Made by a program: the position numbers and the translations under genes. A DNA stretch of 39,036 nucleotides, from IMG/VR virus record IMGVR_UViG_3300047274_000193, positions 1 to 39,036 of that record; one strand, given 5' to 3'. Positions 6,352 to 25,652 of this stretch are shown piece by piece. The DNA comes from a virus. Below the pieces are notes generated by a model that saw nothing but the letters and a program-made list of their open reading frames with translations, had not been told where the DNA came from and made no database searches. How positions within the stretch are numbered: the first letter of the stretch is position 1; each line of letters begins with the position of its first letter.

Positions 6352-6361
6352 AGCACCCCCT

Positions 6362-6389
6362 GTAATACCCTTTTGCCCTTCGCCGTCAA
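6362..6389 (-). promoter_or_regulatory. Sigma70-like promoter, site D (GCTTGACG-16-TATTAC)
   Basis: The minus strand reads TTGACG, 16 bp, TATTAC, then AGGGGGTGCT and the ATG at 6351 (10 bases). The TGA stop of the RusA gene (6386-6388) lies inside the TTGACG. Confidence 0.7.
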
Positions 6390-7678: not shown

Positions 7679-7914
7679 GCCAATACGACGACCAGATTGC
7701 CCGCCTCGGCTTCGAGGCATGGGCCGACAATCAGTTCACCAACTCCATCGAGAACTATGTATTCCCGGGAGATGGAAACGTGACCATCGAGGGCAAGGAC
7801 TACACCCAACGGGTCTGGTGGACCCCGGAGTTCATCCACTTCTTCATCCGTTGCTACACCAAAGACGGTTGGAAGGAAGCGTCCCGGACCATCAAGAATG
7901 ACGTCAAGCGATGA
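7675..7914 (+). CDS. Small hypothetical protein (79 aa)
   Basis: Not recognised. It is soluble, rich in aromatic residues (WWTPEFIHFF at about 47-56), with an acidic N-terminal half and a Lys/Arg C-terminus. Start and stop both overlap the neighbours as ATGA, so it is part of a translationally chained run of three genes ending with the PP-loop enzyme. Nothing suggests a specific activity. Confidence 0.65.
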   Translation: MSQYDDQIARLGFEAWADNQFTNSIENYVFPGDGNVTIEGKDYTQRVWWTPEFIHFFIRCYTKDGWKEASRTIKNDVKR

Positions 7915-8768
7915 ATGACCCGTTCATAGAACCACCCAAGACGAGGTGGAACGTAATCAACCTCGGAGCCGGGGTTCAGTCCTCAACCATGGCCCTTATG
8001 GCGGCCCGTGGAGAGATTGGCCCGATGCCGGATTTCGCCGTGTTCGCCGACACCCAAGCGGAACCGACCAATGTTTACGAATGGCTTGGCTGGCTTGAAA
8101 AGCAACTTCCGTTCCCGGTCGTAAGGGTGACGAAGGGAAACCTAACCGACGAGAGCCTCCGCATACGCCAGAGGCTCGACGGCGGGACATACGTCAAACG
8201 TCTCATCCCTGTGTTTGGACTGCTCCCCAACGGCGAAGTTGTCGGGGCCGTCGGCAGGAAATGCACGGCTGACTACAAGGTAATCCCTATCTTGAAGCAC
8301 ATACGCTCTGCCTGTGAGATTAAGCACGGCCAGAAAGAAGTGACTGTCACCCAATGGATTGGCATTTCTTACGACGAGATGCAGAGGATGAAGTTACCTA
8401 AGGACCCTTGGACCCGGCACAGATGGCCGTTGATTGAGAAGCGGATGAGGCGTTCCCATTGTATCGAATGGATGAAGAACAACGGATACCCGGAGCCTCC
8501 GAGGTCTGCCTGTTATTACTGTCCATTCCACTCCGATGATGAATGGCGTAGGCTCCGCAACGACGACCCGGAACACTTTGCCAAGGCAATCGAGTTCGAT
8601 GAGAAGATTAGGCAGACGAACATCGAAGGAGCAAAGGACCTTCGGATGCAGGTCTACCTGCACAGGTCGTGCAAGCCTCTTGGGCAAGTCGACTTTGACT
8701 CGCCTGAGGACAAGGGGCAGTTGAACTTTGACTTCCAATCCGAATGTGAGGGCATGTGCGGAATCTGA
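7911..8768 (+). CDS. PP-loop / PAPS-reductase-like adenine-nucleotide alpha-hydrolase with cysteine motifs
   Basis: The protein belongs to the phosphoadenosine-phosphosulfate reductase-like branch of PP-loop ATP pyrophosphatases. These bind ATP or PAPS and activate a substrate by adenylation, often for sulfur transfer. Seen in the 285 residues: the pyrophosphate loop GAGVQSSTM (19-27), VFADTQAE (44-51), RKCTADYK with Cys118, Cys184, and a CYYCPFH knuckle (201-207). More cysteines follow at 254, 279 and 283. The Cys118 plus Cys201/204 set is typical of this phage subfamily and could hold a metal or Fe-S cluster. DndC, which supplies sulfur for phosphorothioate DNA, is a distant relative. Sulfur modification of nucleic acid is possible but unproven here. 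It lies directly upstream of the replication genes. Confidence 0.8.
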   Translation: MNDPFIEPPKTRWNVINLGAGVQSSTMALMAARGEIGPMPDFAVFADTQAEPTNVYEWLGWLEKQLPFPVVRVTKGNLTDESLRIRQRLDGGTYVKRLIPVFGLLPNGEVVGAVGRKCTADYKVIPILKHIRSACEIKHGQKEVTVTQWIGISYDEMQRMKLPKDPWTRHRWPLIEKRMRRSHCIEWMKNNGYPEPPRSACYYCPFHSDDEWRRLRNDDPEHFAKAIEFDEKIRQTNIEGAKDLRMQVYLHRSCKPLGQVDFDSPEDKGQLNFDFQSECEGMCGI

Positions 8769-9099: not shown

Positions 9100-9419
9100 T
9101 AGATAGAATAGATGATAAAGATACAAAGGGGAGGGGGTCCAAGACCAACGACTTCATGCTCACCAAGACCCCGAAGCACGTGGGAAACCCGGAGTTCTGC
9201 AAGATGTGGAACGATTGGCTTCGGTATGCCTTCGGCAAGAAGAAGGTCCCATACCTCACCTACGTCGGACAGGTGGACTTCCTTGACGCCATGCCCGTCG
9301 ACGAGGCAATAGAGTCCATGGGCCAATCCATCCGCAACGGATGGCGTGGCCTTTTCCCCGTCCGCAAAGGCAAGGCCCATACCAAACCCCTTACCCAGAA
9401 AGACCATGAGCAGTTTTGA
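9072..9419 (+). CDS. Replication initiator-like protein, C-terminal part (-1 frame)
   Basis: This frame has no good start of its own. The first convincing Met is at 9156, with a G-rich element about 18 bases upstream, further than usual. The 115 codons after the proposed slip encode an acidic linker, then NPEFCKMWNDWLRYAFGKKK and the end AIESMGQSIRNGWRGLFPVRKG. This is the typical C-terminus of phage replication proteins whose N-terminal half is the HTH domain encoded just upstream in another frame. The stop at 9417-9419 overlaps the helicase-loader gene by 14 bases. I read it as the second half of one protein. An independent 87-residue protein from 9156 is the alternative. Confidence 0.65.
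   Translation, partial: CRKLHPDRIVDRIDDKDTKGRGSKTNDFMLTKTPKHVGNPEFCKMWNDWLRYAFGKKKVPYLTYVGQVDFLDAMPVDEAIESMGQSIRNGWRGLFPVRKGKAHTKPLTQKDHEQF
9089..9111 (+). repeat. Two direct copies of AGATAGAATAG: possible origin element
   Basis: An 11-base AT-rich repeat occurs twice (9089-9099 and 9101-9111), separated by one T, followed by further A/T-rich sequence. It lies inside the initiator gene directly after the hairpin, as iterons and the AT-rich stretch lie inside the O gene in lambda. Only two copies are present, so the origin call is tentative. Confidence 0.4.
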
Positions 9420-10077
9420 CATGTCCTGCCATTGTGGCCGTCGCTGTGCCTTGATGGTCAATGCCGAGGGCAAGTTGACCCGCTACCACCGATGCCGTGA
9501 GCATCTGGACCCGGCCCGTTTGAAGGCCGAAGGCTTCGATGAGGTGATGTTCGTCCCGTCCTATCCGGCCCTTTTTCGGGATACCGAGGTTTCCAAGTTG
9601 CACCCGAGGTTGCAGTCGGCCGCAGAGTGGACCCCTAACGGCCAGAAGTCTGGCCTGTTGCTCCACGGAACCACCGGGGTCGGAAAGACCCGGCTGGCTT
9701 GGCACGTCGTCAACCGCCTGTGGATTGAGAAGGCCCGAAAGGACATGAACATGCCTTACAGGTTCTTGACCATGAGGAAGTTCGAGGGGCTCATCGAGGA
9801 GTCTTTCGGCGAGAAGGCCCATAGCAAGATGCTGGACGAACTCATCAAGACCGACCTGCTGGTCTTTGACGACTTGGGCAAGGAGAGGGCGACGGCCCGC
9901 ATGGCTTCCGACCTGTTCGCCGTCCTCGACGAGAGGACCACGGCCATGAGGCCGACCGTAATCACGACCAACTTCAACGGGTCGGCCCTCGTCGACCGCT
10001 TTGACGACAAGGAGATGGCCGCCGCCCTCGTCCGCAGGTTCCGTGACTACTACACCCTCGTGGGGGCTGGGGCTTGA
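9406..10077 (+). CDS. DnaC-like replicative helicase loader (AAA+ ATPase)
   Basis: The protein should load the host replicative helicase at the phage origin, as DnaC or lambda P do. The 223-residue sequence has an N-terminal Cys/His cluster CHCGRRC...HRCREH (8-33) that may bind zinc. The ATPase core follows: Walker A GTTGVGKT (88-95), Walker B LLVFDDLG (151-158), sensor I ITTN (186-189) and a C-terminal Arg-rich helix (about 208-213) that could carry the arginine finger. Length is normal for the DnaC/IstB family. The start ATG at 9406 overlaps the end of the initiator frame by 14 bases, so the pair forms an O/P-like initiation module. Confidence 0.88.
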   Translation: MSSFDMSCHCGRRCALMVNAEGKLTRYHRCREHLDPARLKAEGFDEVMFVPSYPALFRDTEVSKLHPRLQSAAEWTPNGQKSGLLLHGTTGVGKTRLAWHVVNRLWIEKARKDMNMPYRFLTMRKFEGLIEESFGEKAHSKMLDELIKTDLLVFDDLGKERATARMASDLFAVLDERTTAMRPTVITTNFNGSALVDRFDDKEMAAALVRRFRDYYTLVGAGA

Positions 10078-10086
10078 CAGAAAACC

Positions 10087-10611
10087 ATGGCCTTCCACAA
10101 TGACATACGCAGGGCTTGGTTGGGTCTTGCGGGTTGCATAGCATCAACCGGGGTGCCAGCCAAGTGGCTGGCATCCCTTACCCTGCTCTCATCGGCGGCC
10201 TTCGGTTCGGTCGTGAACGAGGACTACCTCGACAGGTTGGCCCGGGTCGAGAGCGACAACAGGCCGCAAGCCGTCGGCAGGGCCGGGGAACTCGGTGCCT
10301 ATCAGTTGAAGAAGGCGGCTTGGGACGACGCCGTCCGGAGGATGTTCGGACGCATCCCGGAGTCCTACTCCTTCTGCCGCCGCAACTGCTTCGACCCGGC
10401 CAAGTCGAGGTCCGTGGCCCGGGAGCATCTTCTCTGGCTTGAAAGGACCATGGTCCGGGAAGGTCATACTCCGACGAAGATTTCTCTTTACATGTCTTAC
10501 AACTTGGGCATGACTATGTCAGAACGCTATGCACACAATCACAGACACCCGTCGCTTGCTGACCAACGCAAGGCCGTATTCGCAAGGGCTGAACGCATCT
10601 TTTCGCCATGA
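10087..10611 (+). CDS. Lytic transglycosylase-like (SLT-family) protein with N-terminal membrane segment
   Basis: The 174-residue protein probably cleaves peptidoglycan glycan strands and may be the endolysin. The SLT-like core shows catalytic Glu in LARVESDNRP (Glu55), the GELGAYQL substrate-binding motif (67-74), a Cys-containing insert (about 87-101) and the YMSYNLG motif (135-141). Before it, residues 27-42 (WLASLTLLSSAAFGSV) form a hydrophobic segment that could be a signal sequence or a signal-anchor-release element. Placement is odd: it lies within the rightward replication operon, nine bases after the helicase loader, while holin-like and spanin-like genes are leftward at 12.3-13.8 kb. 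An alternative role is local wall opening during infection. Confidence 0.78.
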   Translation: MAFHNDIRRAWLGLAGCIASTGVPAKWLASLTLLSSAAFGSVVNEDYLDRLARVESDNRPQAVGRAGELGAYQLKKAAWDDAVRRMFGRIPESYSFCRRNCFDPAKSRSVAREHLLWLERTMVREGHTPTKISLYMSYNLGMTMSERYAHNHRHPSLADQRKAVFARAERIFSP

Positions 10612-10790
10612 AAACAAAGACCAAGAAACATCTGAAACCGGACGGCTCGGAGCCAATCTCCGACCACATGCTGACCGTGCGTGTGCCGGACAAGACCATG
10701 AAACTTTTGAACAAGGAGTCGAAGAAGCGGGCCGTGTCTCGCTCGGACTTCGTGAGGTACGCCATTGAGAAACAACTTCCCACCGCATGA
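10608..10790 (+). CDS. Ribbon-helix-helix DNA-binding protein
   Basis: This small 60-residue protein has the Arc/CopG plan. A basic, flexible N-terminus leads to a single strand LTVRVP (about 22-27), helix A (KTMKLLNKESKKR) and a turn with Ser-Arg-Ser, then helix B (DFVRYAIEKQL). Such dimers bind DNA through the paired strand and often repress their own operon. Start and stop overlap both neighbours as ATGA, so it is co-translated with the annealing protein. It is a candidate regulator of the replication operon or of late promoters. Target sites cannot be identified here. Confidence 0.8.
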   Translation: MKTKTKKHLKPDGSEPISDHMLTVRVPDKTMKLLNKESKKRAVSRSDFVRYAIEKQLPTA

Positions 10791-11515
10791 ACAACATGAT
10801 TAACAACATCACACCCGAACTCGCCGCCGCCTTAGTGGCCGCCATCAAGGAAGCAGGAACGAGCGTCGTCGCCGACGCCCAGAACCCGTTTCACAAAAAC
10901 TCCTACGCCACCCTCGGGGCTCACCTGACGGCTACCAAGGACGTGTTTGCCAAGCACGGCCTCGCCATCGTGCAGTTCCCGCACGGCGACGGCAATCAGG
11001 TCGGCATCAACACCATGGTCATCCACAGGGATGGAGGTTACATCCAGAACTACGTGACCATCCCGGTCGGAGAAAGCGTGAAAGGTCAGGACGCAGGTTC
11101 CTTGTTCTCCTACCTTCGCCGTTATGCCATCGCCGCAGTAGCAGGTCTGGCTACCACGGATGACGACGCAGAAGCCGACCGCATCGTCCGGACCGTTGCC
11201 CCGGCTCCGGCCGCCAAGGCCGCCCCTGCGGCCCGCCCGGCCGCCAAGCCCGCCGCCCCGGTAGCCATCCCGGCAGGAGACATTGACCCGTCGATGACCC
11301 TGCCGTTCGGACGCAACAAGGGCCAGCAGATTGGCGAACTGTCCACCGACGACCTCGCCTATTGGGCGAATACGTGGGAGCCCCGTCCGTTTGAAAAGAC
11401 CGGGCGTGTCTCCGAGAAGGACCTCAAGTTGAAGCGGACCGCCAAGGCCCTGTTCGAGAAGGCTTCGGTTCCGGCCGAGTCCTCTGACGCCCAGCCGGAC
11501 GACGTTCCGTTCTGA
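10787..11515 (+). CDS. erf: ERF-family single-strand annealing protein with an SSB-like C-terminal tip
   Basis: ERF proteins anneal complementary single strands and drive phage recombination. Residues 1-130 show the ERF core: NPFHKNSYATLGAHL (33-47), KHGLAIVQFP (56-65), an HRDGGYI segment (80-86) and GSLFSYLRRYAIAAVAGLATTDDDAEAD (104-131). An Ala/Pro-rich linker (about 137-163) leads to a second small domain with LPFGRNKGQQIGEL (172-185), like the C-terminal extension seen in some exodeoxyribonuclease X-like proteins. The protein ends DAQPDDVPF, close to the acidic D-D-D-I-P-F tip by which SSB recruits partner proteins. No SSB gene is present in the window. Its exonuclease partner is at 5503-6351. 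Start is coupled to the upstream regulator. Confidence 0.88.
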   Translation: MNNMINNITPELAAALVAAIKEAGTSVVADAQNPFHKNSYATLGAHLTATKDVFAKHGLAIVQFPHGDGNQVGINTMVIHRDGGYIQNYVTIPVGESVKGQDAGSLFSYLRRYAIAAVAGLATTDDDAEADRIVRTVAPAPAAKAAPAARPAAKPAAPVAIPAGDIDPSMTLPFGRNKGQQIGELSTDDLAYWANTWEPRPFEKTGRVSEKDLKLKRTAKALFEKASVPAESSDAQPDDVPF

Positions 11516-13136: not shown

Positions 13137-13461
13137 TGTCCGATTTCTTTGTCCGTAGGGCCAGCCTGATGAGGCTTGCGGCTACGACGACGGTTCCGAT
13201 TGCGAGGGCACTTGTGCATACGATTTCAAAGTTGGAAACGATGCGGCTGGCCTGTTCGACGCCGATGCTCTCCTTGTCCGTGACAAGGGAACCGTTCGTT
13301 ATGATGGCTACCGCAGAGTTTGCGTCGGTCATGGCCTTCATCCCGGCGACGACCGTGCTTGATGCCATGAACCCGGCGAGGCCGAAGGCCATCAGGAAAA
13401 GCGACTGCATCAGGATGATGCTCTCAACGACGCTTTGCTTTGGTCTTTCTTGCTTTCGCAT
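13129..13461 (-). CDS. Small membrane protein with two spans, possible holin or antiholin
   Basis: The 110-residue protein has a basic N-terminus and a first hydrophobic segment (about 14-38: IILMQSLFLMAFGLAGFMASSTVV). A hydrophilic loop of about 45 residues follows, then a second segment (about 81-102: IVCTSALAIGTVVVAASLIRLAL) and a basic Lys/Arg tail. It lies between a stronger holin candidate and the spanin candidate and overlaps both (38 and 8 bases), so it is co-expressed with them. Size and topology fit a holin, antiholin or phage-coded inner-membrane lysis helper. No family is recognised. Confidence 0.6.
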   Translation of the reverse strand: MRKQERPKQSVVESIILMQSLFLMAFGLAGFMASSTVVAGMKAMTDANSAVAIITNGSLVTDKESIGVEQASRIVSNFEIVCTSALAIGTVVVAASLIRLALRTKKSDNG

Positions 13462-13765
13462 CGAGGTCTGGTGCGTTGCGGAACTGCCTTATGACCCAAT
13501 CAACGAGTTCGGGTCCGGCCATTCCGGAGAAAGTAAGGATGACTGACTTGTAGATTCCCGCCATCTCCAAAGGCCAGATGGCGAAGTAGGAAAGCACACC
13601 TATGATTACGGACGCCAAGATGCGTCTGGTCCACCAGATTGCAGGATGGGCCTCGTCCGTGATGAGCAGACGTGCCAGCATCCCGGCTCCACCGAACAGG
13701 GCGGTTATCCAACCGCCCCTCTTGAAGTCCTGCATGGCGGCCTCGTAATCTGGAATGTTGCTCAT
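13424..13765 (-). CDS. Holin-like membrane protein
   Basis: The 113-residue protein resembles phage holins of the LydA-like group. A short soluble N-terminus is followed by a segment GGWITALFGGAGMLARLLI (about 17-35), a basic loop with TRR, a second span ILASVIIGVLSYFAIWPL (about 49-66), a third with ILTFSGMAGPELVDWVI (about 75-91), and a strongly basic tail (KARKTKAKRR). Such proteins form the membrane lesions that time lysis. Its ATG overlaps the stop of the giant ejection-protein gene as ATGA, so it is tied to late expression. The likely muralytic partner is the transglycosylase-like protein at 10087-10611 on the other strand. Confidence 0.7.
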   Translation of the reverse strand: MSNIPDYEAAMQDFKRGGWITALFGGAGMLARLLITDEAHPAIWWTRRILASVIIGVLSYFAIWPLEMAGIYKSVILTFSGMAGPELVDWVIRQFRNAPDLDAKARKTKAKRR

Positions 13766-16700
13766 TTGGGCTCATCTCTACGTACACGTCTCTTGGCTTC
13801 CTCAAGGTCGTTGTAGATGCCGACGAGTGCGTTCTGGGGGTTGTAGAGACGGAACTTACGGCCCGCAAGATAGGTGATGGTGTACCCCACCTTGTTACGC
13901 CACATCGAGCCGTTTTCGGTAGTGTCATTGGTCCACGACCTCCAGATGACGGCAGGAGGCGTAGTGGGTCCGGGCAACGGCGGCTGAGGGGGAGGCGTAG
14001 GCGGCGGCGGAGTAGGCGGTGCTGGCGGCGGAGTAGGAGGTGGTGGGACCGGAGGCGGCGGCGAAGGCGGAGCCGGAGGAGGAGTAGGCGGCGTAGGCGG
14101 CGGAGCCGGAGGTCCGGTCGGGGGAGCCTGTTTTCCGCCTGTTTTTTCACGCAACTCTGCACCTCTGAACGGAGTCTGGCCGATGGTTTTCTCGCTCGGA
14201 TTGGCCGAGGTCATCATCAGCATGGTCATCAACTCGGAAATCTGGAAGATGGCCGCAGACTTGTCCTTTATGCGTGAAGTGTCAGGTATGGTCTTGAAAC
14301 TGCCCGTTTCAGGATACGTAGACAGGGCCGAAGCCATCAGTTCGTTGGCCTGTGAAAATGCGTTAGCCATCACCTTCTGCCTCTCTGGCGTAGACCCAAG
14401 AAGGTGCTTCATCACAAAGTCGTAGACCATCTGAGTCGTGCTATCGAACTTGAGTGCATCTACCGAGATTAGGTCACGAATCTGTGAGAAGTTCGTGTGA
14501 ATGGACGTCATAAACTCGGACAACGTGGACCATTGGTAGATTCCCTTTCCAGAGTAGGTAGGATTATTGCGTATTCCGAAGTTCTTGTATCGTGAGATGT
14601 ACTGTGCGACAGTTCCCTTGTGAGGGTCCCTTGGGTCCAAAGGAACATGCTTTGCCGCATGCTCCATGAACTTAACGACCAAGAGTTGAGTGAGAAGATG
14701 CAGGTCCGTTTTCTCAAGCAGACTCGGGTCGCCATCTATCTTCTTCAGAAAATCGTCGGCATTACGGAACCACCCCATGCCGGAGTCGTCTTTGTAAAAA
14801 ACTCCATCAAGCGTGAACCCGCTGTGCGTCATGTACTGTGAAAGTGCATGCTCAAACGGGGTTGCAGTCCGGAAAACAGAAACAGCCTCTGGCCCGGCCC
14901 CAGTATTCTCTCCGTTGACAAACCAAGACTGATTTCTCTGATTGCCAGTAGTTTGCAGGTTTCTGGTTCCTACGTAAGCGTGTGAAACGGCATCAAGTCT
15001 GTCCAACTGGAACGTGTGACCAATCTCATGCAAGATTACCATTCCGTAGGTATCCTGACCGCCATGGTTCCTGCTGTACTTGTGGTCGGTCGAATGTCTT
15101 ATGTCCCTGATTGCTATGTCGGCGAGGTGCGTGTATCCTGACAATGGTATGCCTATGCCTTCTGACTGATGGCTGTAATGGTAAGATTGGTCATCCCTGA
15201 TAAACCTTGCTTCTTCCATGAGATACGGCCTGTCAGCGTTGAACGCAGCAGGTTCAATAACGCCTGTTCCTGCTGGATTCACAGACCTTCCTGTCCTGTG
15301 GTTGCTCTGAAGGGCCCGCCTGTAAAGGTTTGCTACGTGACCTGCGTATCCGCCCTGAACTTCAACCGCCGCAAGAAGCATGAAGTTTGTGACTCCTGAT
15401 TTCTGTCCAGAAGGTTTTGTGGCTGTTCCTTGGAAACTTCCAGCCTGAAGTTTGCTGATGGTCGTATCATCGAAGAACCCGATGTTTGAAGCCTCATAAC
15501 CCGTGTTCCTGATGCCCTTAATGACCATTCCGTCTCCAGTCACCTTCTTTGAACCCGGAGTGTTCCAAGAGAGTGCGTGGATTAGGGCCCTTGCAGAGAC
15601 TGGTAGTCCAGCCCTTTCAAAGTATTCACGGACTGTGGAGATTTTCCTGTTAATCTTCTCCATCAGCAGTTTGTCAGAATCTCCCATGACTCCGGTCTGA
15701 GGCTTAATCCTTGCGTTGAAAGTGTTTTGCGGAGGCTCAATCCTCCTGTAAAGGACTTGAAGTTCGTTGATTTGCTTCGCCATCAAATCATGCAAAGCAT
15801 AGTAGGCTTCATTGAACTGATTGACCTCATCCTTTGTGAGTTGAAGGTCCAAGACTACGTCCGAAAGCGTAATCTTACTGCCGTCATCAGTAATCTTCTT
15901 GGTCTTTGGGTCCTCAAGTGCTGGGCGATAAGGATTAGCCATCTTCCTCAGCAAGTCGCCGATGCCTTTGTGCTTCCCTTTCAGTTTGATTCTTTCGTCA
16001 AGTACACTTGCGATGGCAATAAACTCCTTGACCTCCTTGAGTTGAAGGGCGTCCCTGTGAAGTTCGTCCTTCAGTTGTGCCTTCTGCTCCTTGGTCAGGC
16101 CATAGGTGTTGAGGAGGACCTCGAACATCGGGCCCGGAGGAACTGAGTCAGAAGGTTCAGGAAGCCTGTCGCCTTCTACGGGCTTCATGCTTACCTGAGC
16201 GTCTCCTTCCATGTCGTCAGGCCGGATGGCGTTCTCAAGGGCATCGACGGCTTCGGTGAGGGCTTCAATCTGCTCCTCACGACGCTGATACCCTTCCGTG
16301 TTCTCGAACGCCTCGGAGTTGGACTGCACCTCCTCAAGTTCGTCCAAGATGCTACGCAACTCCTCGATGGAGTCCGCAAGTTCAGAGATGGCGGCTTCCT
16401 TGGCTTCCGGGGTCGTAGCCTTGTCGTAGGCTTCAAGGGCTTCTGCGGCCGTCTTTAGGATGCCCTTCTTGGTTCCGGACTTGTTGCCATACAGGGCCGT
16501 CGTGTGGTCCTTGGTGAACGTCGTGGAGTCGAGCGTGGACTCGGCATCCTCAAGGACCGTCCTGAGGTTTGCGGAGTCAATCTGCGAAGGACGGGTCGGT
16601 TTGGCGGGCTCCGCTTCAGCCGACGGCATCTGGACCTCGTCATAGATGCGGCCAAGCCACTTGTTGAAGTCTGCCGGGTCCTTGTACCTTGAGTACTTGT

Positions 16701-19700
16701 CTCCACCGAACATCTCAGAACCTTCACGGATACGCATGGCCTTGACCTTATCTCCGTCATCGGAGGCCATGATTTTCTGATACTGGTTCTCGTTGATGAG
16801 GCGATAGAACTGACCGTGCTTGTTCTTTCCGAACTCCAAGATACGGGCGTAAATCGGTGTCTCGTCTGCGGAATCCTTACGGTAGCGTAGGAGTGAGCCA
16901 ACGAGTGACTCAGGGTTGAAGTTTGCACCTTGCTCGTCAATCAACTCCTTGATGTTCCGGGGAGGCGGTGCTTCGCCCTCGGCGGGCTTGTAGTAGGCGT
17001 TCCGGTCTATCTTGGTGATGGTAGAACCCAACCGTCCATTAGGTTGCCTCGTAGAACCTTTACCAAAGATTTCCTCACGGATGTGGAAAGGAATGTTATC
17101 CTTGTTGATTACGGAGCCCAAAAGGTATTCAGCACCAAGAGAACGTACACGTTCTCCGGCTTCTGAATAGATAAGTTTTCCGTATCCCTTGTTACGCATG
17201 TCGCTACGAACATCAACCCTTGTGATGTACGCATGGTCGCCGAACTGGGCACCCTTTTCAAAACGAACACCAATCTCTGCTATGGGTTCTTTTCCACCAC
17301 CCTCCCAAGGATTGTCGAATCGAATGGTAAAGCCATACGGGATTTGCTCTCCTGTGAATGGAGAAGCATAGGTATCATAGTCTACCTTGATTGTAAGCCC
17401 ATCAGTAACTTTTGGGTTTTCTTTTGCAAAACGACCCAAGAACTTAGACGTGAAAAGTTTGGAGTTTGTATCGTACTTCCTTCCGGTAGGTTCAAGTTCG
17501 CCCTCGGCGGGCTTGAGGTTCTTGGTGCCTACGGTAAGAGGCTGACCATCCGGGCCCGTGCCACGGGGTAGGGGAGTTGCCCCTTCTTCCATGTCCAAGG
17601 TAGTCTCGATGACTCGATGCTGGTCCTTTGCTACGTCATTCCGAATAACGAACACGGTATCAAAGTCTCCACCGTCATTGATGTTGTTAAACACGACCCC
17701 GTCATGCCCCTTGAGAAATGCCTCTTGAACAAGGAACTTCATCTTTCCTCCGAGTGCGTTTGCAGAATAGTCAAAGACCAACGGGTTGTTCATCTTGAAC
17801 ACCGCCTTAAGCATCTGCGGCTTGACGAAGTCTGGGTTCTTCTGACTGGTCTGATACAGCGGAGACAAGGCAGTCTCATCAGATGCGGCGAAGAAAATGC
17901 CATGGCGTGCTGATTCTGCTCCGGTCGTTTCTCCACCTTTTGATGGGTCAAGTTCACGGACCTTGAGCAACTCAGCAGAGGGCGTTCCGTGTACGCCTAC
18001 TGCTACAAAACCGACACCAGTATCGAACTGTTTGGCGTAGTTGTTTGACTGAAAGAACCGACGCAGAGGTAGTTGTTCTGCCAGATACTTTCCGAGTCCA
18101 TCGTGGACCTTGTCAGGGTCAAGATTGCTGACGTATTCCTTGGCGTCCAATACACGGCTGGCATGCAACTTAAAGTTGGGGCCTTGAACAGAGGACCTTT
18201 GGTAGAAACCACGGTTATTGCCTTGAGTTACTCTCTTAAGTTCGGCCTTAAGCCTCTTGATTTCGTTGCCCATCTTGGCCTGAGCCTCAAGTTCTCCTGC
18301 AAACGGCATCAGGTCACGGACCAGACCCTCTGCATCTTTGATTTGGGTCCTGTTCATGGCCTGAAGGTTTTTGACGAAGTTCGGGATGAACTCATCCATC
18401 GAGGTAGCCTCGTTGGTAAGTCTCAGGGCCGCCTTCATCAAAGCGTCGAAACCACCAAACCAGTTCATCGCAGGTCCGATGGTCTTGCCGCCGATGTACT
18501 TGGAAAGCACATCATTGAGCCCCTTGCTTGACGTTCCGAAACTCGGCTGTCCACCGTCACCAATCTCAAGACGTTCAAGTTGCTTCTCAAGCATCAGTTC
18601 ACGGAGTTCGCCGTTGAAGGCCGCTTCGACCTCCATGATGAGCCTTTCTGCCTGTTGCTTTGTGACGAGTCCTGATTCGATGTTACGCTTGAAGTCTGTG
18701 AACTGTTCGTCGGCCGTCTGACGTACAATAGGAAGATTGCCTACGAAATCTCTCATGGCCGCAGTCTGGAACAGGTCGCCAAGAGAAACGGCTTCACCTG
18801 CTTCATTGTCATCGACTGGCTTGAACATCCTCTGCTCTGAACGAATGTTGCGGATAGACGCCTCAACTTCCTCTTTGTCACGCCTATTGATTTCACGGGT
18901 GATAGCCCGGGATGCTTGGTCTGGATTGGAGAAGGAGCCAATGACTTTACCCTGAGCATCGTAAGCACGGGACAAGGCACCCTTGCTGATGATGTTGTAT
19001 CCTACCGGGTGCTTGTAGACAGTTCCGTTCTGGGTCTGCTCGATGCTGAGTTCGCTCGGCTTGTAGTTCCGGCGGGTGCGGTCGTAGACCTGAGTGTGGT
19101 CGTAGGGTACAATGTCCGGACGAACGGCCACGTGGCTCATGCGGTCGAGACGCAGGGTCTGATAGACGAAGAACTCTCCACGGCCTTCCGGCCCGGCGTA
19201 TCCCGGACGAGGAGGATTGATGTAGGACTCGCCCTGACGCAGAGCCGAGCCGAGGACCTCGTGGAAGAAGTTACGCTTCTTGGCACCGACGTCGCCGCCA
19301 CCGAACAGGTCGGCTGACGGGATGGCGTTCGGGTCGCTGAGGTTCTGAAGGTAGCGGTAGAAGTCCGCTTGGAAGGAGTCGTAGTCGTTTCCGTACAGGG
19401 CCCGGGCTTCAGGCTGGGAGTAAATGGCATAACTGCGACGTCCAAGGTTGTCGTAGTCGAGGGAATGGGCGAGGACGCCGAAGTTGGCGTCGCCGTTCTT
19501 CTTCAGGGTGATGACAGTCTCAAGGCTGTGAGGGACGAACACACGCCGGGTCATCGGTACGGACCTGTTGTCCCCCGTGTTGACCACACGGCGAGGAGTC
19601 CTTCCGGAACCCTGCTCCATGCTTTCGCCCCAGTAGTTTGACTGAACCACGTTCGCCTTCTTGCCCTTGTTAGCGGCAATCTCACGCATGGTCTTGTACT

Positions 19701-22350
19701 TGTCGGCAAGGGCCTGAGTCATGTGGCCGTTCTTGACGATTACCTCGAGTTCACGGTCGGACAGGGTTCCGATGATGGAGGTGTCCCCGTTGACGTCCAC
19801 GATGGTCTGGGTGCCTCGCTCGGCGGCCGGAAGGATGTTGACCGAGTCGATGATGCCTTGGACACGGGTCTGGTTCTCCCGACGCATCTGGGCCTCGGAA
19901 CTCTCACGGGCTCCACCCTTGCGGTCACGACGGAACAGGCCGTCAAGGCCGTGCGTCTCGACGAACCGGGCCCTCTGCTCCGGAGTCATGTTCCGGAGGA
20001 TGATGCTTTCGCCTCCGTTGACGCCAGCCGCCGCACGGACCAAGTCCCTCATCAGGAAGTCCAATGCGGACCTGCGGAGACGGCCGTTGCCCGGACGGAA
20101 CACCTCGTCGATGTAAGCCTGACGGGGCTTTCCGGTCCTCTGGTCGATTACGGTCCGGTTGAAGTCGAAACTCGGCATCGACTTCTTGAGACGGGCTTCG
20201 GTGAAGGACACCCAGCCCATCTTGAGGTTGTCAAAGATGCCACGCAGACCCGGCAGTTTGCCGCCGTAGAACAGGTAGTCCGGGGACTTGTCGTCGAGCC
20301 AATGGTTGAAGTAGTAGGCCCCGAACTCCTCTGACAGATTCTCAAGGACGGCCCTGCCTTCAAGGCCGGACTCCGAGATGAGTTTGCCGCTGGTTTCGTA
20401 CTCCTTGATGGCGGCGTCCAACTGGTCCAACTTGGCCTTCTTCTGGGCCGGGTCCCTGTACTCAATGTCGATGTACCGCTTGAACATCTCATACGCCTCT
20501 GCGGCAGGAATCTCTCCTGCACGGATGAGTTCCCCCTTGGGCCCACGGACGCCAAGGATTGACTGGGTGACGGCATCGGTGAAGTTCTTGGCGAACACCG
20601 ACGTCCGCATGATTCCGTGGAACAGTTCGTGGCCGATGGCGTTCTTGGTCGCCCAGTCGGTGTTGATGAAAATGTCGACCTGACCGGACTTGTCCTTCTG
20701 GATGACGAACCCTTCCCAGCGATGGTACATCTTCGGGTCGTTGGGGTCCTCGCCACGGATGACACGCCCCGGACGGTCCGGGTCGAAGGTGTCGACGAGT
20801 TTGTTCTTCTGAAGGAAAGCCTCGAAGGACGCACCGTCGTGCATGTTCAGACGGGCTCCCGGTGCGACAGTATCCAGACCTACGATGATGTGGTCATAGG
20901 ACTTGTTGTGCTTCTCTCCCAAGGCTCTGAGCAACATCACGGCTTCATACTGGGACTTGTCGGTGTCCTTGAGCCCCTCGATGACCATGTCCGCTTGGAT
21001 GCGGGTACGCTCCTTGTGAATGTCACTCACTCCACGTCCGATGACACCGCCGATGGCCCCAAGTGCGGTTCCTGAGCCAGCCCCTGCGGCCGCACCTTCC
21101 AGACCTCCGGCAAGTCCGCCGAGGGCACCTCCGATGACGGCACCTTCAAGGGCGGCCTCTCCGGCGGCATAGGCGTATCCAAACAGCGGGTCGGCGGCGT
21201 CGATGATTTGGAGCATCCGCTTGGCCTGAGGAGTCAGGTTGTCGGCTTCAGCCTTCAGGGCCCGGGCGGCATAGGAAAGTATGCCCCTCTGTTCCCTGCC
21301 CATCTGGCGTCCGATGGCTCCGACAGTCTCTCCGATGCCCCCTATGACATTGGCGGCATAGTAGGCGTCAGAGACGGTAGACCATCCGGGCACACGGAGG
21401 GCGGAAGTTGCAAGGCCAGCACCCTGAAGGGTTTGCTGGAACGCCTGAGGGGACATTCCGACCACGTCACCGAACAGGGCGGAACCACGGGCTACGGCTC
21501 CGTCAATGGTCCCGCTGACCATGCGGCCAGCGATTTCAAGCGGGGCTCCGGCCACACGCAGGGCACCGGAAAGCACCAAGTCTTTCATGGCCTGAGTGCG
21601 TCCGGCGGCGGCGATGATTTTCTCGGCGAAATGACCAGCACCTACGGCCTTTGCTCCAGCCTTGGCAATAGTGGTAAAGGCACCGGAAGGGATGAAAAGA
21701 CTTGGGTCTGCGATGTACGAGATGGCCTGAGCCACCTCCGGAATCATCATGTCCTTGTCGATTTCAACGTCAAAGACCTCCTTTGAGGCCGAAGTCTGAC
21801 CTTTGAGAATCGCCATGGTTTTGGCGTTGAACTCACGGGCCTTGAGGAACTGCTGATACTCGGCTTCTGGGTCAGAACCATCTCCAGAAAGCACGTTCTT
21901 GAACTGGAAAAGTACGCTGTTAGGGTCCTGAGACTGGGCAAGCATGCCGTAGAAGTCACGAGTGCCACGTGCAAAGCCCTCAAAGATGGTCGGGAGGGCC
22001 TTGGACACCTTGTCGTCGGCTTCGACTCCGGCCTCAATGGCCGTGCCCAAGTCGCTCAAGACCTGACCGAATCCGGACGTAAAGGCGTCGATAATGTCGA
22101 CCTCACGGCTTTTCATCCAGTTCTTGTAAATGTCGTACTCGTCCATGGTCGGAACGTAGTTCTCGTTCTCGGCCATGAGTTGAGCCAACTCATCACCCGT
22201 GATTGGGCCGTTCAGTTCGGCCTCCGCCCGTTCACGCTCCTCGGGAGACAGTTGCGAGAGCAACTGCTGTTCTTCGTCCATCTGCTCGGGAGTCCCGAAC
22301 ATCTCCCCTTGGAGGGGAGCGACGACTTTCTTGCGGATAAGGTCTGCCAT
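13762..22350 (-). CDS. Giant multi-domain polyvalent protein (2862 aa), probable ejected internal virion protein
   Basis: The last and largest of three consecutive core-type genes (334, 763, 2862 residues), in the order of T7 gp14-gp15-gp16, so it is probably packaged and ejected with the DNA. Domains seen, with rough residues: a Gly/Ala-rich membrane-active-looking stretch (388-440); a zincin-like metalloprotease with HELFH at 574-578 and a downstream EEFGAYY; an ADP-ribosyltransferase-like domain of the polyvalent-protein type (1450-1570, with HGTP, GIFFA and GHDGVVFNN motifs); a GNAT acetyltransferase-like domain (about 1630-1755, RNKGYGK); a coiled coil (about 1930-2047); a second metalloprotease with HEIGH at 2441-2445; a Pro-rich linker (about 2738-2798); and a C-terminal small domain also found near 1112-1165. 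No SLT motif was found, unlike T7 gp16. The start ATG at 22350 overlaps the upstream stop (TAATG). Domain calls are by motif reading. Confidence 0.85.
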   Translation of the reverse strand: MADLIRKKVVAPLQGEMFGTPEQMDEEQQLLSQLSPEERERAEAELNGPITGDELAQLMAENENYVPTMDEYDIYKNWMKSREVDIIDAFTSGFGQVLSDLGTAIEAGVEADDKVSKALPTIFEGFARGTRDFYGMLAQSQDPNSVLFQFKNVLSGDGSDPEAEYQQFLKAREFNAKTMAILKGQTSASKEVFDVEIDKDMMIPEVAQAISYIADPSLFIPSGAFTTIAKAGAKAVGAGHFAEKIIAAAGRTQAMKDLVLSGALRVAGAPLEIAGRMVSGTIDGAVARGSALFGDVVGMSPQAFQQTLQGAGLATSALRVPGWSTVSDAYYAANVIGGIGETVGAIGRQMGREQRGILSYAARALKAEADNLTPQAKRMLQIIDAADPLFGYAYAAGEAALEGAVIGGALGGLAGGLEGAAAGAGSGTALGAIGGVIGRGVSDIHKERTRIQADMVIEGLKDTDKSQYEAVMLLRALGEKHNKSYDHIIVGLDTVAPGARLNMHDGASFEAFLQKNKLVDTFDPDRPGRVIRGEDPNDPKMYHRWEGFVIQKDKSGQVDIFINTDWATKNAIGHELFHGIMRTSVFAKNFTDAVTQSILGVRGPKGELIRAGEIPAAEAYEMFKRYIDIEYRDPAQKKAKLDQLDAAIKEYETSGKLISESGLEGRAVLENLSEEFGAYYFNHWLDDKSPDYLFYGGKLPGLRGIFDNLKMGWVSFTEARLKKSMPSFDFNRTVIDQRTGKPRQAYIDEVFRPGNGRLRRSALDFLMRDLVRAAAGVNGGESIILRNMTPEQRARFVETHGLDGLFRRDRKGGARESSEAQMRRENQTRVQGIIDSVNILPAAERGTQTIVDVNGDTSIIGTLSDRELEVIVKNGHMTQALADKYKTMREIAANKGKKANVVQSNYWGESMEQGSGRTPRRVVNTGDNRSVPMTRRVFVPHSLETVITLKKNGDANFGVLAHSLDYDNLGRRSYAIYSQPEARALYGNDYDSFQADFYRYLQNLSDPNAIPSADLFGGGDVGAKKRNFFHEVLGSALRQGESYINPPRPGYAGPEGRGEFFVYQTLRLDRMSHVAVRPDIVPYDHTQVYDRTRRNYKPSELSIEQTQNGTVYKHPVGYNIISKGALSRAYDAQGKVIGSFSNPDQASRAITREINRRDKEEVEASIRNIRSEQRMFKPVDDNEAGEAVSLGDLFQTAAMRDFVGNLPIVRQTADEQFTDFKRNIESGLVTKQQAERLIMEVEAAFNGELRELMLEKQLERLEIGDGGQPSFGTSSKGLNDVLSKYIGGKTIGPAMNWFGGFDALMKAALRLTNEATSMDEFIPNFVKNLQAMNRTQIKDAEGLVRDLMPFAGELEAQAKMGNEIKRLKAELKRVTQGNNRGFYQRSSVQGPNFKLHASRVLDAKEYVSNLDPDKVHDGLGKYLAEQLPLRRFFQSNNYAKQFDTGVGFVAVGVHGTPSAELLKVRELDPSKGGETTGAESARHGIFFAASDETALSPLYQTSQKNPDFVKPQMLKAVFKMNNPLVFDYSANALGGKMKFLVQEAFLKGHDGVVFNNINDGGDFDTVFVIRNDVAKDQHRVIETTLDMEEGATPLPRGTGPDGQPLTVGTKNLKPAEGELEPTGRKYDTNSKLFTSKFLGRFAKENPKVTDGLTIKVDYDTYASPFTGEQIPYGFTIRFDNPWEGGGKEPIAEIGVRFEKGAQFGDHAYITRVDVRSDMRNKGYGKLIYSEAGERVRSLGAEYLLGSVINKDNIPFHIREEIFGKGSTRQPNGRLGSTITKIDRNAYYKPAEGEAPPPRNIKELIDEQGANFNPESLVGSLLRYRKDSADETPIYARILEFGKNKHGQFYRLINENQYQKIMASDDGDKVKAMRIREGSEMFGGDKYSRYKDPADFNKWLGRIYDEVQMPSAEAEPAKPTRPSQIDSANLRTVLEDAESTLDSTTFTKDHTTALYGNKSGTKKGILKTAAEALEAYDKATTPEAKEAAISELADSIEELRSILDELEEVQSNSEAFENTEGYQRREEQIEALTEAVDALENAIRPDDMEGDAQVSMKPVEGDRLPEPSDSVPPGPMFEVLLNTYGLTKEQKAQLKDELHRDALQLKEVKEFIAIASVLDERIKLKGKHKGIGDLLRKMANPYRPALEDPKTKKITDDGSKITLSDVVLDLQLTKDEVNQFNEAYYALHDLMAKQINELQVLYRRIEPPQNTFNARIKPQTGVMGDSDKLLMEKINRKISTVREYFERAGLPVSARALIHALSWNTPGSKKVTGDGMVIKGIRNTGYEASNIGFFDDTTISKLQAGSFQGTATKPSGQKSGVTNFMLLAAVEVQGGYAGHVANLYRRALQSNHRTGRSVNPAGTGVIEPAAFNADRPYLMEEARFIRDDQSYHYSHQSEGIGIPLSGYTHLADIAIRDIRHSTDHKYSRNHGGQDTYGMVILHEIGHTFQLDRLDAVSHAYVGTRNLQTTGNQRNQSWFVNGENTGAGPEAVSVFRTATPFEHALSQYMTHSGFTLDGVFYKDDSGMGWFRNADDFLKKIDGDPSLLEKTDLHLLTQLLVVKFMEHAAKHVPLDPRDPHKGTVAQYISRYKNFGIRNNPTYSGKGIYQWSTLSEFMTSIHTNFSQIRDLISVDALKFDSTTQMVYDFVMKHLLGSTPERQKVMANAFSQANELMASALSTYPETGSFKTIPDTSRIKDKSAAIFQISELMTMLMMTSANPSEKTIGQTPFRGAELREKTGGKQAPPTGPPAPPPTPPTPPPAPPSPPPPVPPPPTPPPAPPTPPPPTPPPQPPLPGPTTPPAVIWRSWTNDTTENGSMWRNKVGYTITYLAGRKFRLYNPQNALVGIYNDLEEAKRRVRRDEPK

Positions 22351-24641
22351 TAGGATGACGGAGGAAGGTTACGTTCGGCCCGCAGACGACGACTACGAAT
22401 CTGCCTGACCACGTCGGAACCCTGACCGCCGACCCTGACATTGAGGCCCATGGACTTGGGCCAGTTGACCAGTTCACGGTCAACACGGGACTTGAGTCCC
22501 TTGAGTGCCGCCAAGTCCTGAGACTCCAGCGAGAAGATGGCCGTCGGGTTTCTCACGATTCTTTCAAGGATTGCCTGTTCCGGAATGGCGACCTGACCCG
22601 GACCGACGATGGGGATACGCAGGGCGGCGATGATTTCCGACTGCAACTGGTCGGCACGAGCCCGGGCGGTCGGCGACAGGGACTCATAACCCATGTCATT
22701 GATGGTGATGAGTTCGTCGATGGCTGAACGGACGTTAGCCATGTGGGCGTAGTCCTTTCGGAAAGCCTGAGCCCCGGCGACGGTTCCACCGAAGATGCCG
22801 TCAAGGATGACGCCGTCGGCGATTTCGGTGTTCTGGAAGGTCAGGGCCTTGGCAGAGGCAATCTTCTCAATGTCCTGTTCCTTGCCGCTGGTAAGCGGAG
22901 TGACGTTGCCCTTGCCGTCGACCATGACCGGGATGCCGTTGACCGTGGTCGTCCGGATTGCCGCCTCGGGATACATCTGACGGTACATCTGGGTGAACCC
23001 TGCGGGAACGGACCCGAAACGCTTGGCATAGAACTCACGGGCAACGGACTCCTTCTCTGCGGCGTTGAGTTGGACTTCGACCATCCTTTCTCCGAGGTTA
23101 AGTTCACCGATTGAGAACGGCTTGGACTGTGGTTTCTGTTCTGGAGTCGTCGCTTTCTTAACTTCCTCAGGTCTTGGAGCCTTCTTGTTGGTGGCGATGA
23201 TGTTCTTAAGACGCTGTTCCTCCTTCTTGTATTCTTCGAGGAGCCTTGCGTCGTTTCCGGTTCTCGCTTCTTCGGCGGAAAGTTTCTGTTTGTCGGTGTA
23301 TCTGGTTATTGCGTCCTCAAGTGCCCTTGTTTCATTGACCGTCAGGTCACGCCCGGCAGACGCAAGAGCCCATCCGTATGGACCAGTAAGTGAAGCAAGA
23401 TACGGCCTAACAACTCCAGAAGCAAAACCAGTAAGAGAAGTTCTTATTCCAAGAGGGTCATACAACTTGGACTCATCTCCATCAAAAGTTCGTTTTACAA
23501 TAACATCTGCAAGTTCAGGAGTAATCTTGACGTCACTTCGTATCATTTCAGCAAAACCAAACACGCTCTGTTTGCCTATGGCTTCATTTATCTTGAGACC
23601 CTGACGTCCAATCCAGTTCTGTGCTTCCCTTCGTTTTCCGGGGGTGATTGCCTCGCCTGAATCAATCTTGTCCTTCAGTTCCTTCATCTTGGCCTGAAGC
23701 GTGGTCAGTTCTCCCTGTGCCTGTGTTGCATAGTCAGGCTTCTTGGGCTTTTGAGCCTTAGGACTCAATGCGGCTTCTGCCGCCTGAGCGTCAGCCATGC
23801 TCTGCTCGTAGGAGGCGTCCTGTTCGGCCCGCATCTTTCCAAAGTCGGTGAGTTCTCCGACCTCGTTGGTTTCCTTCATCGCATACTGCCCGAGTGCGTA
23901 GGCGAACTCGGACTTCTGCTCAGGAGTCATGTCTTTGTTGGCATACTCAGCCTTCACCTTTTCGATGTATTCACGAACACCCTTCTGAACCATGTCGGGC
24001 TGGTCCGGGAACGTCTTTTCAAGGTTAGCCTTCAGGTCCCTGACTCCCTTGAAGAACGGATTGTTAGGGTCGACCAACACGTTCGGAGTGACGACGTCCT
24101 CGGCCACCTGAGCCGTATCAGGCGTCTGGTTTGCGGTCTGTTCAAGACGGTTCTTCAGGATGAAGTCGTTAATCTTCATCTGATGTTCCACCTGTCCCAT
24201 GGCCGCCGAAGCGGCGTTGACCGCTTGCAACTTGGCGTTGAGGCCCTTCGCAGGGGCCACCTTCAGTTGCTGGATGGCCGTGTCCAGTTGCTTCGCATAC
24301 TGAACCATCGGGTTCTTTGATACTTCTGCGAACATGGCGTCATCCGTACCTTCGGACGGGTCATCGGTCATGTACCTGTCGAGGGTCGCACGGTCGATTC
24401 CGGAGGCTTCAAGGAACGCCTCACGCTGAAGTAGCAACTGCTGGCCCTTGAGTTCAATCTCCTGATTGGCCGCCTCTGACTTCGCCTTGGTGTCGTAGTA
24501 TTCCTTAAGCCCGGATGCGAGTGAGGAACCGAGGTTCGAGAACCCGGAACCGAGCATACTGCCGATGTTGGCACCTGCCTGTGCGATGCCCGGAACGGCC
24601 TCGAAGCCTCCGGACTGGTACCTTTGGAACGGGTTTGCCAT
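22350..24641 (-). CDS. Internal virion protein, T7 gp15-like by size and order (763 aa)
   Basis: No domain is recognised with certainty. The 763-residue protein is largely helical. It has an N-terminal Gly/Ser-rich hydrophobic region (about 15-45), long Gln/Ala/Lys/Glu helices (about 50-330) with a coiled-coil stretch at about 310-330, a more hydrophobic middle (about 405-440: TGFASGVVRPYLASLTG) and a mixed C-terminal part. Length (T7 gp15 is 747) and position between a small Ala-rich core protein and the giant protein support a role in the ejectosome that spans the cell envelope. The start is ATG 24641. DNA at 23401-23520 drops to 40% GC (48 of 120 by hand count), hinting at a recombined patch. 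Confidence 0.68.
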   Translation of the reverse strand: MANPFQRYQSGGFEAVPGIAQAGANIGSMLGSGFSNLGSSLASGLKEYYDTKAKSEAANQEIELKGQQLLLQREAFLEASGIDRATLDRYMTDDPSEGTDDAMFAEVSKNPMVQYAKQLDTAIQQLKVAPAKGLNAKLQAVNAASAAMGQVEHQMKINDFILKNRLEQTANQTPDTAQVAEDVVTPNVLVDPNNPFFKGVRDLKANLEKTFPDQPDMVQKGVREYIEKVKAEYANKDMTPEQKSEFAYALGQYAMKETNEVGELTDFGKMRAEQDASYEQSMADAQAAEAALSPKAQKPKKPDYATQAQGELTTLQAKMKELKDKIDSGEAITPGKRREAQNWIGRQGLKINEAIGKQSVFGFAEMIRSDVKITPELADVIVKRTFDGDESKLYDPLGIRTSLTGFASGVVRPYLASLTGPYGWALASAGRDLTVNETRALEDAITRYTDKQKLSAEEARTGNDARLLEEYKKEEQRLKNIIATNKKAPRPEEVKKATTPEQKPQSKPFSIGELNLGERMVEVQLNAAEKESVAREFYAKRFGSVPAGFTQMYRQMYPEAAIRTTTVNGIPVMVDGKGNVTPLTSGKEQDIEKIASAKALTFQNTEIADGVILDGIFGGTVAGAQAFRKDYAHMANVRSAIDELITINDMGYESLSPTARARADQLQSEIIAALRIPIVGPGQVAIPEQAILERIVRNPTAIFSLESQDLAALKGLKSRVDRELVNWPKSMGLNVRVGGQGSDVVRQIRSRRLRAERNLPPSS

Positions 24642-24647
24642 GAATGG

Positions 24648-25652
24648 TTATCGTCCGAGGCTTCCGAGGTACGCCCCGCCGAGCGAACCAAGGCCGGACA
24701 TGATGCCGCTTTGGAGGCCAGCCTGAGCCTGAGCCCGGGCGATGTTGACCTGAGCCTGAGTGCTGTACTGCTGGCCCATGACGCCAGCCATGTACTGAGA
24801 CTCCGGCTGGACGAACTGCGGGCCCTGAGCCCCGGTCATGCCGGATGCGGCTCCCATCAGGCTTCCGGGGCTCATAACGTTGGAAAGCATCGGAGTTGCG
24901 TAAGTGGCGGCGGCTCGGTCGGCTACGCCAGCACCAAGTCCATAGACTCCGGTGGCGTACTGCCGTGCCCTGTTTTCACGTTCCAAGCCAAGTTTGTAGG
25001 AGTTAAGCACTTCCTGACCGACTGCCTGATTCCCGGTGAGCCCACGGGCCGCCATGGCCGCACGGGCTGACTGCTGGGCCAGCGTCTGCATCTGGGGAGT
25101 CAGGGACATTCCGGCGTTCAGGTCGGATTGTGCCTGAGACGTCATCGTTGAAAGAAGCCCCGTAGCACCCGGGGCCATGCTACCCATGTACGTGTCCCTC
25201 GCCAGCGAGGCCGCTTGAGCGTAGGAAGGAGCCATGCTTGCCAGATTGTACTGGCTGATTGCGGCTCCAGCGGGTGCATACTGCTCATACAGCCGACCAA
25301 GGGACCCCAACTGTCCCATGAGCGACTCCTCCTGCAACTGCCGATACATCGGCATCGCCTCACGTTCGGCCTGTGCTATGTCAGGAAGAATCTGGCGTTG
25401 AGCCTCAAGGGCTCCGGTCATCTCGCCGTAGTAAGAACGGGCGTTAGGGGCTGAAATGCCCTTGGCGGCTTTACTGCCAGTACGGTATGCGTCTCCGGCC
25501 ATTCCAAGGGCTCCTCCAACGAGGGCACCTCCCATACCTGCGGCGGCAATAGAACCAACTCCTGCGGTTCCACCAATGGCGGCCCCTACGAGGGCCAGAG
25601 GACCGCAACAGCCCAATCTTGAGGGCATGTTGAAAATGGCAGGAAAACTCAT
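24648..25652 (-). CDS. Internal virion protein, T7 gp14-like by composition and order (334 aa)
   Basis: The protein starts with a Gly/Ala-rich hydrophobic region (about 12-60, LVGAAIGGTAGVGSIAAAGMGGALVGG). Long helices rich in Ala, Gln and Met follow, then Met/Gly/Gln repeats near the end (AQAQAGLQSG, SGLGSLGGAYLGSLGR). These are features of the small podoviral core protein that inserts in the outer membrane during DNA ejection (T7 gp14). It is longer than T7 gp14 (196) but similar to other podoviral versions. It overlaps the upstream gene as ATGA and is followed six bases later by the gp15-like gene. The functional assignment rests on order and composition. Confidence 0.65.
   Translation of the reverse strand: MSFPAIFNMPSRLGCCGPLALVGAAIGGTAGVGSIAAAGMGGALVGGALGMAGDAYRTGSKAAKGISAPNARSYYGEMTGALEAQRQILPDIAQAEREAMPMYRQLQEESLMGQLGSLGRLYEQYAPAGAAISQYNLASMAPSYAQAASLARDTYMGSMAPGATGLLSTMTSQAQSDLNAGMSLTPQMQTLAQQSARAAMAARGLTGNQAVGQEVLNSYKLGLERENRARQYATGVYGLGAGVADRAAATYATPMLSNVMSPGSLMGAASGMTGAQGPQFVQPESQYMAGVMGQQYSTQAQVNIARAQAQAGLQSGIMSGLGSLGGAYLGSLGR

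What the first reader, a model, noticed from the sequence alone, without database searches (positions are those of the whole stretch)
13762..22350. Giant ejected protein combining two metalloproteases, an ADP-ribosyltransferase-like and a GNAT-like domain
The 2862-residue protein ends a T7-like core cassette but has polyvalent-protein domains instead of the usual transglycosylase: HELFH at 574-578, an ART-like domain near 1450-1570, GNAT-like RNKGYGK near 1721, HEIGH at 2441-2445 and a Pro-rich linker. If it is injected with the DNA, the phage would deliver a package of effector enzymes in the first seconds of infection, before any gene is expressed. That fits the polyvalent-protein concept of early anti-defence or host reprogramming. 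The combination with two unrelated zincin motifs in one chain deserves structural analysis.
Basis: partly seen in the sequence, partly recalled or inferred. Interest (0 to 1): 0.82.

Follow-up and report, generated by a model that had tools for sequence, protein, structure and literature searches.

The report
Phage giant protein with swappable enzymes
An uncultivated virus of bacteria encodes one 2862-residue protein, probably packed in the virus head and shot into the cell, whose front part is fixed across dozens of related viruses while its back part is an exchangeable set of enzyme-like domains lying between two copies of the same small domain.

Summary
In detail: an intact 2862-aa ORF (minus strand, 13762-22350) with HELFH-574, an ADP-ribosyltransferase (ART) domain, a GNAT domain, HEIGH-2441 and a Pro-rich linker. 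ART is supported by structure prediction, GNAT by Pfam; both zincins rest on motif conservation, not on a fold match. The domain mix is not new: it fits phage-type polyvalent proteins (Iyer 2017, PMC5512222). What IMG/VR relatives add is the layout. The first ~1150 residues, zincin 1 included, are a conserved core; the rest is variable cargo of 270-2122 residues. In 40 of 41 complete family members the cargo lies between exactly two copies of one ~53-aa domain, one after the core and one at the C-terminus. A close relative (84% and 90% identical flanks) has an unrelated module where HEIGH sits. The gene follows conserved 334- and 763-aa genes, like T7 gp14-gp15-gp16 and DEV gp72-gp73-gp71, but capsid and portal are phiEco32/SU10-like, not T7. 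Best reading: a gp16-equivalent ejection protein carrying exchangeable effectors. Packaging, injection and enzyme activity are inferred, not shown.

The parts
13762..22350 (-). giant polyvalent protein gene, 2862 aa
   Evidence: intact ORF; homologous core in 57 IMG/VR loci, 45 non-redundant proteins with the window
20860..22269 (-). N-terminal region, residues 28-497: helical, conserved, with a Gly/Ala-rich glycine-zipper-like stretch ~401-440
   Evidence: domain mapping; invariant glycines; helical but low-confidence model
20017..20727 (-). zincin-like domain 1, residues 542-778: HELFH 574-578 (20617-20631) and EEFGAYY 674-680 (20311-20331)
   Evidence: HExxH in 43 of 44 homologues, EEFG[AS] in most; strands, HExxH helix and Glu helix in the model
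19051..20067 (-). conserved core domain, residues 762-1100, function unknown; much of it modelled at pLDDT 80-88
18895..19041 (-). bookend domain copy 1, residues 1104-1152
   Evidence: found by a profile built from C-terminal copies only, E=2.5e-8 in the window; exactly two copies in 40 of 41 complete proteins
17554..18105 (-). ADP-ribosyltransferase-like domain, residues 1416-1599
   Evidence: AF2 model pTM 0.63; all 50 listed Foldseek PDB matches are ART folds, best E=8.7e-5; invariant HGT
17059..17484 (-). GNAT domain, residues 1623-1764, RxxGxG motif RNKGYG at 1719-1724
   Evidence: Pfam PF00583 E=8.5e-4 in the window; up to 4.4e-16 in relatives' cargo
16168..16953 (-). cargo module of unknown function, residues 1800-2061
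   Evidence: shared with L120 and L133-L137
14125..15903 (-). zincin-like module 2, residues 2150-2742: HEIGH 2441-2445 (15016-15030), candidate third ligand E2612
   Evidence: only homologue is L137, 35% identical, HEIGH and (S/A)EFM kept; no PDB or Pfam match
13954..14124 (-). Pro-rich linker, residues 2743-2799
   Evidence: a Pro-rich stretch precedes the C-terminal bookend in about half of the relatives
13777..13935 (-). bookend domain copy 2, residues 2806-2858, ending 4 aa before the C-terminus
22350..24641 (-). 763-aa protein upstream of the giant gene, gp15-like by position
   Evidence: homologues upstream of the giant gene in nearly all relatives; LysM in three relatives
24648..25652 (-). 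334-aa Gly/Ala-rich protein, gp14-like by position
   Evidence: conserved in 25 of 25 records searched
13424..13765 (-). 113-aa hydrophobic protein, holin-like by appearance only, ATGA-coupled to the giant gene
   Evidence: conserved in 40 records; no significant Pfam match

Best explanation
It is a phage-type polyvalent protein acting as the third ejection (internal virion) protein of an uncultivated podovirus, the positional equivalent of T7 gp16 and of the giant DEV/N4 gp71. Steps: (1) it is made late, translationally coupled to gp14-like and gp15-like genes [gene overlaps shown; timing inferred]; (2) it is packed in the head and ejected, its helical, glycine-zipper N-terminal region reaching or crossing the inner membrane [inferred]; (3) the invariant core zincin processes the chain to free cargo, or cuts a host protein [signature shown, role inferred]; (4) the cargo (here ART, GNAT, an unknown module and a second zincin) modifies host proteins at once, against defence or to redirect the cell [domains shown, activity inferred]. 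Cargo is exchanged between relatives, while a ~53-aa domain is kept on each side of it, perhaps as docking or processing points [layout shown, role unknown].
For: Intact ORF coupled at both ends. Upstream 334- and 763-aa genes and downstream 113- and 262-aa genes conserved in about 40 records. HExxH in 43 of 44 homologues with a downstream Glu motif in most. ART fold. GNAT. ART-PolyVal in relatives' cargo, down to 8.1e-19. Core mean column identity 38% against 13% for cargo. Two bookends in 40 of 41 complete proteins, cargo 270-2122 aa. Module replacement relative to L133 between flanks 84% and 90% identical. LysM in relatives' 763-aa homologue. Core matches predicted viral proteins named large polyvalent, ART-PolyVal-like and NAT_SF, E down to 1.4e-51 for a named one. 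DEV gp71 precedent: a giant enzyme as ejection protein (PMC10925440).
Against: No virion proteomics, and no cultured phage in the 50,697-record set carries the core. No fold match of the core to a solved ejection protein or zincin; matches to 'internal virion protein' are not significant. The core model is poor (pLDDT 57, pTM 0.39). Many relatives' GNAT copies lack a clean RxxGxG motif, and the window's ART has no clear third catalytic residue, so some cargo may be inactive.
Confidence: 0.68

Rival explanations
1. It is a structural core or tape-measure-like protein of the head; the enzyme-like domains are degenerate binding modules, and nothing enzymatic is delivered.
For: Degenerate acetyl-CoA motifs in many GNAT copies; unclear third ART residue; L189 has lost the first His of HExxH; two relatives match tape-measure phrog_167.
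Against: HExxH kept at ~30% identity; HGT and Asp positions invariant in ART; RxxGxG intact in the window GNAT; Pfam-recognisable ART-PolyVal and GNAT recur in the cargo.
Confidence: 0.13
2. The core zincin is a cell-wall peptidase that opens peptidoglycan during entry, replacing the transglycosylase of T7 gp16.
For: Nearly invariant, sits in the putative ejection protein, and no transglycosylase is in this chain.
Against: A peptidoglycan-binding LysM sits in the 763-aa homologue of some relatives and the window has a separate SLT gene. Polyvalent metallopeptidases are proposed to process proteins (PMC5512222).
Confidence: 0.12
3. The protein is not ejected but works inside the producing cell late in infection, for example in lysis timing, and lies next to virion genes only by operon layout.
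For: The coupled downstream gene encodes a small hydrophobic, holin-like protein (by appearance only).
Against: It starts within the stop codon of the gp15-like gene; phage polyvalent proteins typically lie with virion genes (PMC5512222); giant enzyme ejection protein precedent (PMC10925440).
Confidence: 0.07

Closest known systems
Phage-type polyvalent proteins (Iyer et al. 2017, PMC5512222)
   Same: Large chain with metallopeptidase, ART and neighbouring GNAT, encoded next to virion genes; one to five metallopeptidases per chain are described.
   Different: Here a long fixed core precedes variable cargo that lies between two copies of one small domain; a text search of the paper found no such arrangement, though its figures and supplement were not read.
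Schitoviridae (N4/DEV) giant virion RNA polymerase, DEV gp71 (PMC10925440)
   Same: About 3000-residue enzyme-bearing protein in a gp14/gp15/gp16-type gene triplet; N4 vRNAP also carries a metallopeptidase domain (PMC5512222).
   Different: No RNA polymerase domain was recognised here; effector-type cargo instead; no significant sequence or fold match.
T7 gp16 ejection protein
   Same: Third and largest gene of the core triplet by order and size (T7 from general knowledge).
   Different: No lytic transglycosylase domain, no sequence similarity, capsid and portal of another lineage.
BFVD/UniProt proteins of uncultured Caudovirales phages, e.g. A0A6J5R0Z9 and A0A6J7W8Y5
   Same: Strong structural matches to the core, named NAT_SF or large polyvalent protein-associated domain.
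   Different: Database predictions with automatic names; no functional study known to me.

Membership tests
Phage polyvalent protein | two or more domains of disparate activity in one chain | tested here: met
   ART fold, GNAT and two HExxH modules
Phage polyvalent protein | gene among virion genes | tested here: met
   directly after the gp15-like gene; conserved neighbourhood
Phage polyvalent protein | transfer into the host with the DNA | not testable with these tools
   needs virion proteomics and an infection assay
Zincin metallopeptidase, domain 1 | HExxH plus downstream Glu ligand | tested here: met
   HExxH in 43 of 44 homologues; EEFG[AS] in most, EELAAE in L187
Zincin metallopeptidase, domain 1 | zincin fold | tested here: inconclusive
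   secondary structure order fits, but no significant PDB fold or sequence match
Zincin metallopeptidase, domain 2 | HExxH plus Glu conserved in homologues | tested here: inconclusive
   kept in the single homologue, 35% identical; no fold prediction run
ART / ART-PolyVal (PF18760) | ART fold | tested here: met
   Foldseek matches are ART folds, E=8.7e-5, with low TM-score and moderate pLDDT
ART / ART-PolyVal (PF18760) | Pfam ART-PolyVal match in the window itself | tested here: not met
   no match; only separate paralogous domains in relatives match; family profile against those gives hhalign E=5.5e-6, prob 86
GNAT | GNAT profile match and RxxGxG motif | tested here: met
   E=8.5e-4, 0.7 bit under the curated cut-off; RNKGYG present; relatives far above it
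T7 gp16 ejection protein | lytic transglycosylase domain or sequence similarity | tested here: not met
   no match in the giant protein
N4-like virion RNA polymerase | T7-type single-subunit RNA polymerase domain | tested here: not met
   no such Pfam or PHROG match

The most novel reading that the evidence does not exclude
These phages use a standard ejection chassis: a fixed membrane-crossing, zincin-bearing core plus a cargo bay delimited by two matching bookend domains, into which effector enzymes are swapped; the core zincin cuts at or near the bookends after injection to release the cargo.
Probability: 0.25. Interest if true: 0.78.

Novelty: new variant of a known kind. Interest (0 to 1): 0.56.

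Why it matters
If right, this group of small-genome podoviruses spends about a fifth of its genome on a protein that delivers enzymes before any gene is expressed, and natural variation already shows which parts are chassis and which are cargo. That makes polyvalent proteins testable as a delivery system: what crosses the envelope, what is cut and what is released. The exchanged modules also give a list of candidate anti-defence or host-takeover enzymes of unknown target.

Tried and rejected
Megablast and tblastn against 50,697 phage records: no match for the giant protein, its HEIGH module, three divergent relatives' cores or the 334-aa neighbour; one ART-only match of L187 to an Octadecabacter virus. 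Scan of GTDB genomes: no homologue, so no host. Scans for relatives of the HEIGH module: only L137. PDB profile searches of zincin 1, bookends and neighbours: nothing convincing. Core fold search in PDB: nothing significant. Phage C75C1, the best TerL match, also has a giant CDS but no homologous domain was found. The hhalign test against the L121 ART-PolyVal family is not used because that profile had picked up window-type ART. Weak Pfam matches of the 113- and 262-aa neighbours to eukaryotic or unrelated families were set aside as chance. Weak endolysin/transglycosylase PHROG matches of the 763-aa family are not counted separately, since they may reflect the LysM domain.

Full report
WHAT IS THERE. 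The window is a whole IMG/VR virus record of 39,036 bases, classed linear, so it may be a fragment. It overlaps both neighbours (TAATG upstream, ATGA downstream), so it belongs to one operon with the 763-aa and 334-aa genes before it and the 113-aa gene after it.

DOMAINS. Pfam sees only a GNAT, just below its cut-off, but relatives give strong GNAT matches (up to 4.4e-16). The ART region was modelled from 21 sequences (pLDDT 66, pTM 0.63). All 50 listed PDB matches are ART folds, mostly tankyrase catalytic domains, best E=8.7e-5, though TM-scores are low (0.3-0.4). HGT is invariant; the third catalytic residue is unclear. Pfam ART-PolyVal matches separate paralogous domains in relatives, and the window-type ART profile aligns to one such family with E=5.5e-6. 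Zincin 1 has HExxH in 43 of 44 homologues, with EEFG[AS] about 100 residues later in most; the exception, L189, reads SEETFH and is probably inactive. The model places HExxH and the Glu on helices after a hairpin, but no solved zincin matches. The HEIGH module has one homologue, L137, 35% identical, keeping LHEIGH and WST(L/M)(S/A)EFM.

ARCHITECTURE. The major head protein led to 235 IMG/VR relatives and the giant's N-terminus to 57 loci. The first ~1150 residues align throughout (mean column identity 38%); what follows does not (13%). A ~53-residue domain occurs exactly twice in 40 of 41 complete proteins: once after the core, once 1-9 residues from the C-terminus, and in no other ORF of the loci. 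The exception is L189, the most divergent, whose C-terminus looks like a diverged copy. A profile built only from C-terminal copies finds the inner copy independently (2.5e-8 in the window; the twelve best at E below 1e-5). A tree separates inner from C-terminal copies with one exception, so the duplication is old. Cargo between them is 270 to 2122 residues and holds 0-3 GNATs and, in most members, one or more ART-type domains. The smallest, L187, has one ART-PolyVal there (5.2e-17). L133 is 84% identical to the window over residues 1-1621, then carries ~546 extra residues, is 80% identical over 1612-2064, has an unrelated module where the window has HEIGH, and is 90% identical over the last 72 residues. 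That is module exchange between close relatives.

GENOMIC CONTEXT. The 334-aa gene is present in 25 of 25 records and the 763-aa gene in 23 of 25. Homologues of the 763-aa protein carry a LysM domain in three relatives, which suits a periplasm-spanning ejection protein. Head and portal are of the phiEco32/SU10 kind, so 'T7-like' describes gene order only.

MECHANISM. The closest precedent is DEV, in which gp72, gp73 and the giant polymerase gp71 are ejection proteins equivalent to T7 gp14, gp15 and gp16 (PMC10925440). The present protein fits the third place with effector domains instead of a polymerase. Iyer et al. already proposed that polyvalent metallopeptidases process their own chain before packaging, in the head or after injection, or act on host proteins (PMC5512222). 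The data here do not choose between these. The bookends invite the idea that cargo is held or cut at them; nothing here tests it.

NOVELTY. The domain list is a new member of a described class. Homologous cores already exist in UniProt/BFVD from uncultured phages under automatic names. The fixed core with a bookended, exchangeable cargo region is, as far as a text search of the defining paper shows, not described; its figures and supplement were not read.

Noticed in passing
window 10087-10611 (+): A separate small SLT transglycosylase gene (Pfam 3.1e-7) lies on the opposite strand; among the relatives' loci at hand only L137 has a homologue.
   Followed up: partly
L168, L182, L183 763-aa homologues: The gp15-like protein is 1130-1330 aa in some relatives instead of 720-920, with a LysM domain in three of them.
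   Followed up: partly
L189:9884-20572: Divergent 3563-aa relative with the first zincin His replaced (SEETFH) and a C-terminus that looks like a diverged bookend.
   Followed up: no
L126, L127, L128, L131, L139, L156, L158: The window-type ART domain is split by an insertion of roughly 100-300 residues at the same place in several relatives.
   Followed up: no
window 5503-6396 (-), 10787-11515 (+), 9346-10077 (+), 7911-8768 (+): DUF3799 PD-(D/E)XK nuclease, ERF recombinase, DnaC/IstB-like ATPase, and a PAPS-reductase-like protein by sequence appearance only.
   Followed up: partly
L160 (contig of 88,287 bases): One homologue lies on a contig about twice the length of the other long ones; not checked for duplication or a larger genome.
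   Followed up: no
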